Below are positions 58,875 through 62,018 of a DNA stretch of 64,000 nucleotides, piece by piece. The first letter of the stretch is position 1. Every line of letters starts with the position of its first letter. The notes under the pieces are model-generated. The model had not been told where the DNA came from. It worked only from the letters and a program-made list of their open reading frames with translations, and made no database searches. The translations under genes were made by a program, and so were the position numbers. The DNA comes from Sphingomonas cannabina (GTDB lineage Bacteria; Pseudomonadota; Alphaproteobacteria; Sphingomonadales; Sphingomonadaceae), in NCBI RefSeq assembly GCF_021391395.1, contig NZ_CP090059.1, positions 62,001-126,000 of the forward strand, in the 5' to 3' direction.

Positions 58875-59489
58875 ATGCTCGAACACGTTCCCCGCTGGCT
58901 CGGCGCCGTGCTCAAGGGGGTGCGGGCGGGCGCGGACAAGCTCACCATCGTCCAGCCGGACCTCGGCAATTTCGCCGCACTCGAGCTGCGCAGCCCCGCC
59001 TTCGCCGATGGCGGGCGGTTGCCCGAACGCTTCACCGCCGACGGCGCGGGCGTGTCGCCGCCCTTGTTCTGGACCGGCGTGCCCGAGGGCACCGACAGCC
59101 TGGTGCTGATCGTCGAGGACCCCGACGCACCGGCGCCGAGCCCGCTCGTCCATGCTATCATCTGGGGGATGCCCGGCGAGGACGGGCGGCTGGCCGAAGG
59201 CGCGATCGTCGCCGACGGACCGGGCGGCGAAGGCGGCGACGTCGGCCGCAACAGCTTCCGCCGCGAAGGCTGGCTGCCGCCTGACCCGCCGCCGGGCCAC
59301 GGCGAGCACCGCTACGTCTTCCAGCTGTTCGCGCTCGCGCCGAGCGACACGCCCGGCGAGACCCCCAGCCGCGGCAACGCCATCGCGGCGATGCGCGGGC
59401 GCGTGCTCGCCGCCGGGCTGATCACCGGCACCTATTCGCGCGGCGAGCCGGCGCCGACCGGGCGCGTGGGATCGGTTGCCGCCGCCTGA
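58875..59489 (+). CDS. PEBP (YbhB/YbcL, Raf-kinase-inhibitor-like) protein
   Basis: This 204-residue protein has the PEBP core (SPPLFWTGVPEGTDSLVLIVEDPDAPAPSPLVHAIIWGMP, and PPPGHGEHRYVFQLFAL). The bacterial role is unclear; the fold binds anionic ligands. It shares a unit with the GST gene and ends directly before the palindrome at 59491. Confidence 0.88.
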   Translation: MLEHVPRWLGAVLKGVRAGADKLTIVQPDLGNFAALELRSPAFADGGRLPERFTADGAGVSPPLFWTGVPEGTDSLVLIVEDPDAPAPSPLVHAIIWGMPGEDGRLAEGAIVADGPGGEGGDVGRNSFRREGWLPPDPPPGHGEHRYVFQLFALAPSDTPGETPSRGNAIAAMRGRVLAAGLITGTYSRGEPAPTGRVGSVAAA

Positions 59490-59490
59490 T

Positions 59491-59505
59491 CGCCAACAGT
59501 TGGCG
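59491..59505. promoter_or_regulatory. Perfect palindrome, possible upstream activator site
   Basis: CGCCAACAGTTGGCG is a perfect inverted repeat (7-bp arms, 1-nt centre) centred about 107 bp before the start predicted from the sigma-54-type promoter at 59580. A further GTTGGCG half-site is at 59521. The lack of a loop argues against a terminator. Confidence 0.55.
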
Positions 59506-59579
59506 TGATTTGCGGAAGATGTTGGCGCTTGACACCACATCCAAATCGCGCCCTTAGCAAAATCAATAACTTAGAAAAT

Positions 59580-59595
59580 TGGCACGACCCCTGCA
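59580..59595 (+). promoter_or_regulatory. Sigma-54-type promoter upstream of two tiny membrane peptides
   Basis: TGGCACGACCCCTGCA keeps TGGCACG and the -12 TGC with exact spacing; only the first T of TTGC is C. The region around it is unusually AT-rich. The start near 59605 gives a leader of about 51 nt to the ATG at 59657. Confidence 0.65.
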
Positions 59596-59656
59596 AAACA
59601 CTTGGCATCGGCGCCGGATGGTCCGGCACCGAAGACAAGACAGGGAGTTCGTTACC

Positions 59657-59767
59657 ATGGCTATCCGTTTCGAGACCTTCCAGCGCAGCGCCGTCGCGGT
59701 GTTCGGTGCGCTGATCGCCACCATGATGCTGGTCGTCGCTTCGGCTCCGCACGTTCCGCTCGCCTGA
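59657..59767 (+). CDS. 36-residue single-helix membrane peptide (unknown)
   Basis: The product has a short amphipathic start (MAIRFETFQRSA), one hydrophobic helix (VAVFGALIATMMLVVASA) and a short PHVPLA tail. GGGAG lies 9 nt before the ATG. Position behind the sigma-54-type promoter and codon usage like neighbouring genes support a real gene. Family not recognised; it may act as a membrane or stress-response peptide. Confidence 0.6.
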   Translation: MAIRFETFQRSAVAVFGALIATMMLVVASAPHVPLA

Positions 59768-59817
59768 CCGGAACGTCGGAGCCCCCGACCCCCAACGCTG
59801 ATCCAGGAGTTCACGTC

Positions 59818-59919
59818 ATGCTTCGTTCGTTCGCCATCGGCGCCGTCTCGTTCGCCTTCACCGCGGTGCTGATCCTCGCCAGCGCCACCGCCCCCGGGGT
59901 TCATCTCATCGCGGCCTGA
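59818..59919 (+). CDS. 33-residue single-helix membrane peptide (unknown)
   Basis: The product is almost one hydrophobic helix (FAIGAVSFAFTAVLILASA) with a single basic residue after Leu2 and a tail APGVHLIAA. AGGAG lies 8 nt before the ATG. It follows the first peptide by 50 nt, and both have GGAGTTC in their leaders, suggesting one transcript. It shares the layout (Arg, helix, Pro-His-Leu tail) but not close identity with the first peptide. Confidence 0.55.
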   Translation: MLRSFAIGAVSFAFTAVLILASATAPGVHLIAA

Positions 59920-60002
59920 GCCCCGGGCTGCCGCTTCCCTCCCGCAACGGGAGGAACAACGTCGCGCTCCCGCCGGTTGGACGATCATTCCCGGCCGAGG
60001 AC

Positions 60003-60863
60003 ATGGGAGCGATGACCGACACAATCGAAATGATCCATGAGGATGCGCTTCCCGGACAGGAGAGCGCATTGGAGCCCAAGCCCGACTGGCGGCCGCGCTA
60101 TCCCGGATCGGGGCGGCTCCAGGGCCAGGTCGCGATCGTCACCGGCGCCGACAGCGGCATCGGCCGCGCCGTCGCCGCGCTGTTCGCCCGCGAGGGCGCC
60201 GACATCGCGATCGTCTATCTATGCGAGACCGAGGACGCGCTGGAGACCAAGCGCATCGTCGAGGCGGAGGGCCGCCGCGCGATCACGCTGACCGCCGATG
60301 TCGGTTCGAAGAAGATGTGCGAGCGCGTCGTCGCCGAGACGATCGACGCGTTCGGGCGCCTCGACGTCCTGGTCAACAATGCCGGCGAGCAGCATCCCGA
60401 CCCGGACATCACCGACATCACCGAGGAGCAGCTGAGGCGCACCTTCCAGACCAACATCTTCGGCATGTTCTTCATGGTGCAGGCGGCGATGCCGCACCTG
60501 AAGGAGGGCGCGCGCATCGTCAACTGCACCTCGATCACCGGCTATCAGGGATCGAAGGAACTGCTCGACTATTCGTCGACCAAGGGGGCGATCACCGCCT
60601 TCACCCGCTCGCTGTCGGAAAACCTGATCGGCAAGGGCATCCGCGTCAACGCGGTGGCGCCAGGGCCGATCTGGACGCCGCTCAACCCGTTCGGCGGGAC
60701 GCGCCCCGAGAAGATGAAGGGTTTCGGCAAGGACACCCCGATGGGCCGGGCCGGCCAGCCCAACGAGGTCGCACCGGCCTTCCTGTTCCTGGCGTGTGAG
60801 GATTCGAGTTACATGTCGGGGCAGGTGCTGCACCCCAATGGCGGAACAGTCGTCAACGGCTGA
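60003..60863 (+). CDS. Short-chain dehydrogenase (YghA-like)
   Basis: This 286-residue SDR has an N-terminal extension (EPKPDWRPRYPGSGRLQGQ) typical of the YghA group, the cofactor motif TGADSGIGRA, NNAG, and the catalytic YSSTKG with Ser in NCTSITGYQGS. Substrate unknown; relatives are often stress-induced. ATG 60012 is an alternative start. Confidence 0.88.
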   Translation: MGAMTDTIEMIHEDALPGQESALEPKPDWRPRYPGSGRLQGQVAIVTGADSGIGRAVAALFAREGADIAIVYLCETEDALETKRIVEAEGRRAITLTADVGSKKMCERVVAETIDAFGRLDVLVNNAGEQHPDPDITDITEEQLRRTFQTNIFGMFFMVQAAMPHLKEGARIVNCTSITGYQGSKELLDYSSTKGAITAFTRSLSENLIGKGIRVNAVAPGPIWTPLNPFGGTRPEKMKGFGKDTPMGRAGQPNEVAPAFLFLACEDSSYMSGQVLHPNGGTVVNG

Positions 60864-60878
60864 ACGGACGCCCTTCGC

Positions 60879-61910
60879 TCAGCCGACGCGAATGCAGTTC
60901 CGGCCCTCGTTCTTGGCCCGGTAGAGCAGACGGTCGGCGCGGCCGAAGGCGGCGCGGGCCGTGTCGCCCTTTGCTACCGGCGCCAGGCCAGCCGAGAAGG
61001 TGACCGCACCCAGCGGCTCGTCGGTCTCGCGCAGGCGATAGCGCTTGGTCGCGACCAGCTCGCGCGCGATCTCCAGCGTCGCGCGGGCCGAGCCGGCGTC
61101 CATGTCGGTGAACAGCACGACGAACTCCTCGCCGCCGTAGCGGGCGACGAGATGGTTGCCGCAGGCCTCGCGCAGCGCAGCGGCGATCGCCCTCAGCACC
61201 CGGTCGCCTACCGCATGTCCGAAGCGGTCGTTGACCGACTTGAAATGATCGATGTCGCACACGGCGAGCCACATCGTCGCATCCGTCGCGGCATGGCTGG
61301 CGAACGCCTCCTCGAAGGCGCGGCGATTGGGAAGGTCGGTCAGCGGATCGCGCCGGGCGTTGTCGCGCGCCTCCTCGAGCTTGGCGCGCAGCTCCGCGGC
61401 CTCGCGGGTCGCGCTCTCCAGCCGTGCCTCGGCGGTACGCACGCGCGCGACCATCGCGGCAGTGATCCGCGCGACCTCCGCCACCGCCGCCGACCCGTTA
61501 TCGAGCGCGGCCTGCTGCTGGCGGATGCGGTCGGCGCTCTCGGCAAGCTCCCGGCCGAAGCCATGGGTCTCGGCATGAAGGCCCTGGATGATGTCGGCGA
61601 AGCCCTCGACCTGGAGCTGCGTCTGCGCGATCAGCCCGTCGGCACGATCGCGTTCGCTGCCCGTGCCGGGCGTGACCTCGCCCCCCAGCGCCTCGATATC
61701 GCGCAGCGTCAGCCGCACGCCGCCGTCGGTCAGTCGGGCCACTGCCTGCGCCAGCGGCGCATCGGGATAGGCGAGGATCGCATAGGCGAAGGCGTAGTTG
61801 GCCGGATCGGGGTCGAGCCGCTGTGCCGTCAGGAAATCGCCGATCCGGTCGAACAGCTGGCGCGGCGCTGAGCCGGCCTGTTCGGAGCGGACGACGTGAG
61901 CCCCCTTCAT
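60879..61910 (-). CDS. Diguanylate cyclase (GGDEF) with helical N-terminal domain
   Basis: This 343-residue protein has a helical N-terminal sensor-like region (residues 1-185, ending in a coiled coil) and a GGDEF domain with RRDPLTDLPNRRAFE and the active-site motif GGEEF (259-263). It should make cyclic di-GMP. The RxxD inhibitory site five residues upstream is absent. No transmembrane segment is seen, so it is cytoplasmic. Cyclic di-GMP often controls the flagellar state, so a link to region 1 is possible. Confidence 0.88.
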   Translation of the reverse strand: MKGAHVVRSEQAGSAPRQLFDRIGDFLTAQRLDPDPANYAFAYAILAYPDAPLAQAVARLTDGGVRLTLRDIEALGGEVTPGTGSERDRADGLIAQTQLQVEGFADIIQGLHAETHGFGRELAESADRIRQQQAALDNGSAAVAEVARITAAMVARVRTAEARLESATREAAELRAKLEEARDNARRDPLTDLPNRRAFEEAFASHAATDATMWLAVCDIDHFKSVNDRFGHAVGDRVLRAIAAALREACGNHLVARYGGEEFVVLFTDMDAGSARATLEIARELVATKRYRLRETDEPLGAVTFSAGLAPVAKGDTARAAFGRADRLLYRAKNEGRNCIRVG

Positions 61911-62018
61911 GATCTTTTCCGATCCCCTCGCGGCCAGCCCAGCCCGGCGCGGCCGCTCAGGCACGCGTCTAATGCCGAACTGCTAACATCGGGTTGTCGC
62001 TACGATATATCAGTGAGG

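What the first reader, a model, noticed from the sequence alone, without database searches (positions are those of the whole stretch)
59491..59919. Palindrome, sigma-54-type promoter and two tiny membrane peptides: candidate undescribed unit
A perfect 15-bp palindrome lies about 107 bp before the start predicted from a -24/-12 element, the usual distance for a sigma-54 activator site. The promoter leads only to two genes of 36 and 33 codons, each a single hydrophobic helix with a good ribosome-binding site. The palindrome differs from the flagellar repeats, so another activator would be involved. An inducible membrane-peptide pair (stress response, transporter or protease modulation, or toxin-like action) is a fair guess only.
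Basis: partly seen in the sequence, partly recalled or inferred. Interest (0 to 1): 0.8.

Follow-up and report, generated by a model that had tools for sequence, protein, structure and literature searches.

The report
Phage-shock satellite encoding tiny membrane peptides
A bacterium, probably a Sphingomonas, carries away from its main phage-shock (membrane-stress) genes a second switch of the same kind that appears to turn on two tiny membrane peptides; the first peptide is kept in nearly every relative examined in its genus but belongs to no described family that we could find.

Summary
The activator is probably PspF. A site like those of psp-operon promoters lies before this promoter: it is the best match in the 64 kb, and 39 of 43 distinct unit promoters (this one included) have one at <=10 of 200 shuffles. 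Site plus -24/-12 element occurs twice in the 4.39-Mb genome: at the psp operon and here. The 15-bp palindrome is at chance frequency, exact in 2 of 43 loci, and merely overlaps that site. A profile of peptide 1 hits 177 of 180 good genomes of the genus, usually once. In other genera of the family a homologous peptide behind the same promoter is usually followed by a mini-PspC, and those peptides are related to the first gene of the psp operon. Here no PspC lies beside the unit (0 of 43); a second peptide usually follows. So this looks like a satellite of the phage-shock regulon, placed like E. coli pspG. I infer an inner-membrane partner of PspA/PspC. Regulation rests on sequence only; function is inferred; no transcript or protein was observed.

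The parts
59500..59516 (+). Predicted upstream PspF site (UAS I), TTGGCGTGATTTGCGGA, first base 80 bp before the T of the TGG of the -24 element
   Evidence: Best match in the 64-kb window to a matrix made from psp-operon promoters of other genomes (12.3, next 11.4); 0 of 200 shuffles of the upstream region reach it
59522..59538 (+). Predicted second PspF site (UAS II), TTGGCGCTTGACACCAC, weaker
   Evidence: Matrix score 7.1 on the - strand, 4.0 on the + strand; in related promoters best sites cluster at -91 and -68, about 23 bp apart
59491..59505 (.).
   Evidence: chance frequency; exact in 2 of 43 distinct loci
59579..59595 (+). Sigma-54 -24/-12 promoter element TTGGCACGACCCCTGCA
   Evidence: relaxed form in 43 of 43 and stricter form in 41 of 43 distinct unit loci; same kind of element in the genome's own psp operon
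59608..59632 (+). 5' leader stem-loop just after the predicted start
   Evidence: Predicted fold: z -1.48 for 59605-59660, z -4.21 for a 42-base leader stretch; 38 of 38 distinct unit leaders fold better than the mean of their shuffles; no consensus fold from the alignment
59657..59767 (+). ORF1, peptide 1, 36 aa, single predicted membrane span
   Evidence: Profile hits 193 of 201 genus genomes; 39 distinct 36-codon sequences among 44 records, pN/pS 0.64
59820..59921 (+). ORF2, peptide 2, 33 aa, single predicted membrane span
   Evidence: Alignment of 16 sequences; candidate in 31 of 43 distinct unit loci
60003..60863 (+). SDR-family oxidoreductase gene, possible but not constant last gene of the transcript
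   Evidence: Pfam and NCBIfam matches; starts within 350 bp of the end of ORF1 in 10 of 43 distinct loci, beyond 1 kb in 6, not found in the about 1.5 kb held in 27

Best explanation
This is a satellite transcription unit of the phage-shock (Psp) response. Under membrane stress PspA is expected to release PspF (established for E. coli, inferred here). PspF would bind the paired sites at 59500-59538 and drive sigma-54 polymerase from the -24/-12 element at 59579-59595. The transcript would begin near 59605 with a stem-loop and encode one or two single-span peptides, with the downstream SDR as a possible extra gene. The peptides should sit in the inner membrane, N-terminus inside. Because homologous peptides partner a mini-PspC in other genera, and those peptides are in turn related to the first gene before pspA in the psp operon, I infer that they act in the PspA/PspC membrane complex, as an anchor, modulator or effector. 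Shown from sequence: sites, promoter, conservation, linkage to psp genes. Inferred: PspF binding, induction, membrane location, role.
For: (1) The genome has rpoN and a psp operon: PspF over the TIGR02974 cut-off (474.2 v 443.55), with PspA, PspB and PspC over theirs, and a 47-codon hydrophobic ORF between promoter and pspA. (2) A matrix from psp-operon promoters of other genomes finds a site in 39 of 43 distinct unit promoters (window included) with at most 10 of 200 shuffles reaching it, mostly at -91, -68 or near -80. (3) TTGGYGNNNNTT-N60-90-TGGCACGNNNNNTGC occurs twice in 4.39 Mb, at psp and here, reversed control 0. (4) In 249 family genomes this pattern gives 53 places in 45 genomes (places counted from the listing) against 1 control match; of 30 such loci fetched, 19 are followed by a PspC motif, 2 by pspA, 6 by a hydrophobic ORF only, 3 by neither. 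Seven mini-PspCs were put to Pfam and all 7 exceed the PspC cut-off. In 332 genomes of the class outside the family: 3 matches against 3 control matches. (5) Peptide 1 is related to the mini-PspC-linked peptides (hhalign 98.5%, 0 of 60 block-permuted controls reach it), and these to the psp-operon peptides (96.4%, 0 of 60); peptide 1 also matches peptides collected by promoter pattern (88%, 0 of 60, score 26.0 v control maximum 23.9). (6) The profile of peptide 1 hits 177 of 180 good genus genomes; 186 of the 193 genomes hit have one match, 7 have two.
Against: No expression, footprint or protein evidence. The direct tie between peptide 1 and the psp-operon peptides of its own genus is weak: with the one row that had been found by peptide similarity (L008) left out, 26.8% and 2 of 60 controls reach the score (with it, 84% and 0 of 60). 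The tie runs through the other-genus peptides, which were themselves collected with the peptide-1 profile, so that comparison is partly circular; single-span peptides inflate similarity. The pattern and the consensus used to pick the matrix sites were drawn after seeing these promoters. Four of 43 unit promoters lack a clear psp-type site (L066, L075, L078, L090). The window site leads the 64 kb only narrowly (12.3 v 11.4). The matrix finds the E. coli pspA site (7 of 300 shuffles) but not pspG (66 of 300). Peptide 2 is not shown to be related to peptide 1 (5 of 60) or to PspC (13 of 60). pN/pS of 0.64 and 0.75 is only moderate constraint.
Confidence: 0.77

Rival explanations
1. A sigma-54 unit for the same peptides, but driven by another enhancer-binding protein (for example NtrC-, FlbD- or PrsR-like) that reads the palindrome.
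For: Enhancer proteins share a fold and many NtrC-type families match PspF itself; the palindrome is perfect and is shared exactly by L066, one of the four promoters without a clear psp-type site.
Against: The site shared with psp promoters is conserved, the palindrome is not; in other genera the homologous peptides lie with mini-PspC or in psp operons.
Confidence: 0.12
2. The peptides are not the point: the region is a structured leader or small RNA, or a set of leader ORFs, that controls the downstream SDR.
For: 5' stem-loop in unit leaders, strong folding before the SDR, SDR close behind in 10 of 43 loci.
Against: The SDR starts beyond 1 kb (6) or is not found in the about 1.5 kb held (27) in 33 of 43 loci while promoter and peptide 1 remain; length and residues of peptide 1 are kept.
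Confidence: 0.07
3. A toxin-like membrane peptide pair, as in type I toxin-antitoxin modules.
For: Size and hydrophobicity fit.
Against: Hit in 193 of 201 genus genomes, usually once, and in a stable neighbourhood (GGDEF gene just upstream in 40 of 43 loci), unlike scattered mobile modules; no sigma-70-like promoter for an antisense RNA found by a simple scan of 59400-60100 (a weak test); homologues in other genera lie with psp genes.
Confidence: 0.04

Closest known systems
E. coli pspG, the PspF-controlled gene outside the psp operon (PMC9239133 and PMC2763126, passages read)
   Same: Separate from the psp operon, sigma-54 promoter with upstream PspF site, small inner-membrane protein, expected to be an effector of the Psp response.
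   Different: PspG has 80 residues (CDS) and two predicted spans (PMC2763126); these peptides have 36 and 33 residues and one span each. No direct comparison with PspG was run; neither peptide matched any Pfam family up to E 0.01. The pspG upstream region does not score with the matrix made here.
First small gene of psp operons in this family (ZMO1062, called pspD and reported up-regulated with pspABC in xylose medium in Zymomonas, PMC8645129, passages read, may be of this kind; that is my inference from its position in the list)
   Same: Same promoter type and same place at the head of the transcript; related through the peptides of other genera.
   Different: Here there is no pspA behind it, the peptide is shorter than in the genome's own psp operon (36 v 47 aa), and the direct sequence tie is weak.
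Peptide plus mini-PspC units in other genera of the family
   Same: Homologous peptide 1, same kind of promoter and site. In four loci (L160, L161, L167, L172) a downstream ORF looks by eye like the window's AhpC-type protein; not tested.
   Different: No PspC motif beside the unit in the window's genus (0 of 44 records = 43 loci); peptide 2 is usually there instead (31 of 43).
Stress-induced small membrane proteins such as E. coli YohP (PMC12719787, passages read)
   Same: A small membrane protein raised under stress and linked to the phage-shock response.
   Different: YohP expression is reported to induce the response; here the peptides would be part of its output. No sequence relation tested.

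Membership tests
PspF regulon (sigma-54, phage shock) | -24/-12 promoter | tested here: met
   59579-59595; relaxed counterpart in 43 of 43 and stricter in 41 of 43 distinct unit loci
PspF regulon (sigma-54, phage shock) | PspF-type upstream site | tested here: met
   Matrix from psp promoters; 0 of 200 shuffles here, 39 of 43 unit promoters at <=10 of 200; best in 64 kb, narrowly. By sequence only
PspF regulon (sigma-54, phage shock) | pspF and rpoN in the same genome | tested here: met
PspF regulon (sigma-54, phage shock) | Expression depends on PspF and rises under membrane stress | not testable with these tools
   No expression data available here
PspG family | Size and two membrane spans of PspG | tested here: not met
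   33-36 aa, one span each; no Pfam match up to E 0.01 and no NCBIfam match up to E 1 for either peptide. Not filed as PspG
PspC domain (PF04024) | PspC domain in the unit | tested here: not met
   No match for ORF1 or ORF2; motif in 0 of 44 genus records. Present in the homologous unit of other genera
psp-operon leader peptide family | Sequence relation to the small peptide before pspA | tested here: inconclusive
   Direct comparison 26.8% with 2 of 60 controls reaching it once the similarity-found row is left out; indirect tie through other-genus peptides 98.5% and 96.4%, 0 of 60 each. Not compared directly for peptide 2
Type I toxin-antitoxin | Antisense RNA gene | tested here: inconclusive
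   No consensus sigma-70 promoter in 59400-60100; weak test

The most novel reading that the evidence does not exclude
This bacterial family uses an undescribed family of single-span peptides as a standard component of the Psp response, made from both the psp operon and a dedicated satellite promoter. The peptide would be the membrane partner that recruits or releases PspA or PspC; in the window's genus the satellite's mini-PspC has been lost and a second peptide stands there. PspF-controlled transcripts in this family also share a 5' stem-loop of changing sequence, perhaps a stabiliser or a timing element.
Probability: 0.37. Interest if true: 0.7.

Novelty: new variant of a known kind. Interest (0 to 1): 0.55.

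Why it matters
In E. [quoted passage not shown] This locus gives a predicted second PspF target in an alphaproteobacterial family, with a testable site and near-universal conservation of peptide 1 in the genus sample, and points to a peptide family that the two annotation libraries searched (Pfam, NCBIfam) do not hold. It also gives a clear genetic test of what small membrane members of the Psp response do.

Tried and rejected
Rejected: the palindrome as the activator site. Not supported: peptide 2 as a remnant of PspC or a copy of peptide 1 (peptide 2 against the pattern-collected peptides gave 44% with 0 of 60 controls, so a distant tie is open). Rejected as a constant feature: the SDR. RNAalifold on 31 leaders gave no consensus structure, perhaps through gaps in the alignment; the stem-loop rests on single-sequence folds and on pairs counted by a script that picked the best hairpin per leader, which favours pairing (stem of at least 4 in 42 of 44 records; two-sided changes at the first, third and fourth pairs from the loop). 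For the window the longer fold is unremarkable (z -1.48, 15 of 200 shuffles fold as well) and the genome's own psp leader does not fold better than shuffles (z 0.11).

The A3 comparison still held L008.

Dropped rows and choices: in counts on the unit I left out L002 (same locus as L142) and the other-genus loci L006, L008, L022, L024. The second copy in G315 was not fetched. The matrix used 19 sites, one (L130, cut short) probably false; one search repeated it with 18. Matrix sites were picked with a consensus I wrote after seeing the promoters. Of 21 psp loci, a small hydrophobic ORF between promoter and pspA was shown in 17; L122, L124, L130 and L138 gave none. The 20 pattern-collected peptides were picked by me from the 30 loci, some starts trimmed by eye and near-duplicates dropped. 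In one search a motif was too strict; one search replaces it. Of the 17 profile-found records, two (L163, L175) are one locus, one (L164) is from the window's genus and one (L169) also holds pspA. One search used a faulty pattern and gave nothing. No structure prediction was run.

Names: the search for related loci with A4 found three records, all labelled Sphingomonas; the window's organism, genus and family are unnamed here, and 'Sphingomonas' and 'sphingomonad' are inferences from these. Literature: eight searches listed no paper that I recognised as describing this unit; seen as passages only: PMC11237479, PMC9239133, PMC3709507, PMC2763126, PMC12719787, PMC8645129; all others as search listings. 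The library lacks most subscription papers.

Full report
What is there. Neither peptide matches Pfam up to E 0.01 or NCBIfam up to E 1. An SDR-family gene starts at 60003 on the same strand.

Conservation. A search of 149 family genomes with peptide 1 alone gave one strong relative, in the same genus, and weak matches of which some lay beside psp genes: L006 and L008 hold a sigma-54-type promoter, a small hydrophobic peptide and a pspA-like gene, with a PspF-like frame divergent (by eye); L022 and L024 hold small peptides before a PspC-type frame. In the genus, peptide 1 alone hit 58 of 201 genomes at E <= 0.01; a 21-sequence profile, built from genomes in that set, hit 193 of 201, and 177 of 180 of good quality; 186 of the 193 have one match and 7 have two. 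Some of the weakest may not be the unit. Of 43 distinct unit loci examined, all have a relaxed -24/-12 element in the expected place and 41 a stricter one. A GGDEF gene lies just upstream on the same strand in 40 of 43; the window is one of the three exceptions, its flanking genes being reversed relative to the unit. pN/pS is 0.64 for ORF1 (39 distinct sequences) and 0.75 for a core of ORF2 (27), with second codon positions changing least.

The activator. The one PspA gene found in the genome lies in a psp operon with divergent pspF; PspF, PspA, PspB and PspC exceed their NCBIfam cut-offs; rpoN is present. psp promoters from relatives show TTGGYGNAWTTNCCCAA about 80-94 bp before the -24 element, followed by a second TTGG half-site. 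A matrix from these, without the window's genome, finds a site in 39 of 43 distinct unit promoters, the window's included, at <=10 of 200 shuffles; the four failures are L066, L075, L078 and L090. Positions cluster at -91 and -68, with the window at -80, one helical turn away (the phasing is my reading). The window's site, 59500-59516, is the top match of the whole 64 kb, though narrowly (12.3 against 11.4). The E. coli pspF/pspA intergenic region scores with the same matrix (7 of 300 shuffles reach it); E. coli pspG does not (66 of 300). The composite of half-site and promoter occurs twice in 4.39 Mb, at psp and here; the pattern was drawn knowing both, so the informative part is that nothing else matches and the reversed control is empty. 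Over 249 family genomes it gives 53 places in 45 genomes against 1 control match; over 332 genomes of the class outside the family, 3 against 3.

What the palindrome is. Perfect palindromes of this size are as common in the window as in shuffles (30 against 25-32), and this one is exact in 2 of 43 distinct loci (window and L066) and within two mismatches in 4. Its right half is the left end of the conserved site. It is best read as an incidental overlap or an extra half-site.

Link to the Psp system. In other genera the profile-found loci carry the same kind of promoter in most cases and a homologous peptide; a PspC motif follows in 14 of 17 records (see dropped rows), and seven mini-PspCs of 59-67 residues all exceed the Pfam PspC cut-off. 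Loci found by the site-plus-promoter pattern, with no regard to the peptide, agree: 19 of 30 with a PspC motif, 2 with pspA, 6 with only a hydrophobic ORF, 3 with neither. Profile comparisons with block-permuted controls relate peptide 1 to the mini-PspC-linked peptides (98.5%, 0 of 60) and these to the psp-operon peptides (96.4%, 0 of 60), but peptide 1 directly to the psp-operon peptides of its genus only weakly (26.8%, 2 of 60) once a similarity-found row is left out. Peptide 1 against peptides collected by pattern gives 88%, 0 of 60, by a narrow margin (26.0 v 23.9). The first of these is partly circular, since those peptides were found with the profile. None of the 43 loci of the window's genus has a PspC motif near the unit.

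Mechanism. From work on E. coli (PMC9239133, PMC3709507, PMC2763126, passages seen), PspA holds PspF inactive until membrane stress, PspF binds upstream sites of pspA and pspG, and sigma-54 polymerase is then activated. I infer the same here. The peptides' role is inferred from company: partner of mini-PspC elsewhere, and kin, through those, of the head gene before pspA. An anchor or modulator of the PspA/PspC complex is my choice, at perhaps even odds; direct action on the membrane is the main alternative within the same frame. The SDR may be carried along in this genome, but is not a constant member.

Leader stem-loop. In 38 of 38 distinct unit leaders, 20 of 20 leaders of other genera and 17 of 20 psp leaders, a 42-base stretch after the promoter folds better than the mean of its shuffles (mean z -2.4, -1.8, -1.2). 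A longer window fold is unremarkable (z -1.48) and an alignment-based fold found no consensus, so covariation is suggested but not proved.

Verdict. A real, conserved satellite of what looks like the phage-shock regulon in this family, not found described in the searches made here: a new variant of a known kind. Regulation by PspF is well supported by sequence; function is open.

Noticed in passing
window 59608-59632; unit loci L001-L156; psp loci L062, L123-L141; other genera L179-L206: A 5' stem-loop of changing sequence directly after the predicted start of PspF-type transcripts: 38 of 38 unit, 20 of 20 other-genus and 17 of 20 psp leaders fold better than the mean of shuffles; no consensus fold from the alignment.
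   Followed up: partly
window 59937-59954: Strong hairpin (CCUCCCG stem) between ORF2 and the SDR gene, without a T tract.
   Followed up: no
window 60879-61964 and relatives: A GGDEF (diguanylate cyclase) gene stands directly upstream of the unit on the same strand in 40 of 43 distinct loci; in the window the flanks are reversed and it lies downstream, convergent.
   Followed up: partly
L062 3746-4859: The psp operon continues with further small proteins beyond pspABC, two of them weakly PspB-like (below cut-off).
   Followed up: no
e.g. L092-L121: Tens of genomes of the genus have a second, better-scoring PspA/IM30-type gene besides the weaker-scoring one; the window's genome has only one.
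   Followed up: no
L022, L163/L175, L168, L179, L190, L194: Tandem copies of the peptide gene before mini-PspC in other genera, suggesting repeated local duplication.
   Followed up: no
G315:C1:603023 and 1724804: One genome of the genus has two identical-scoring copies of peptide 1 far apart.
   Followed up: no
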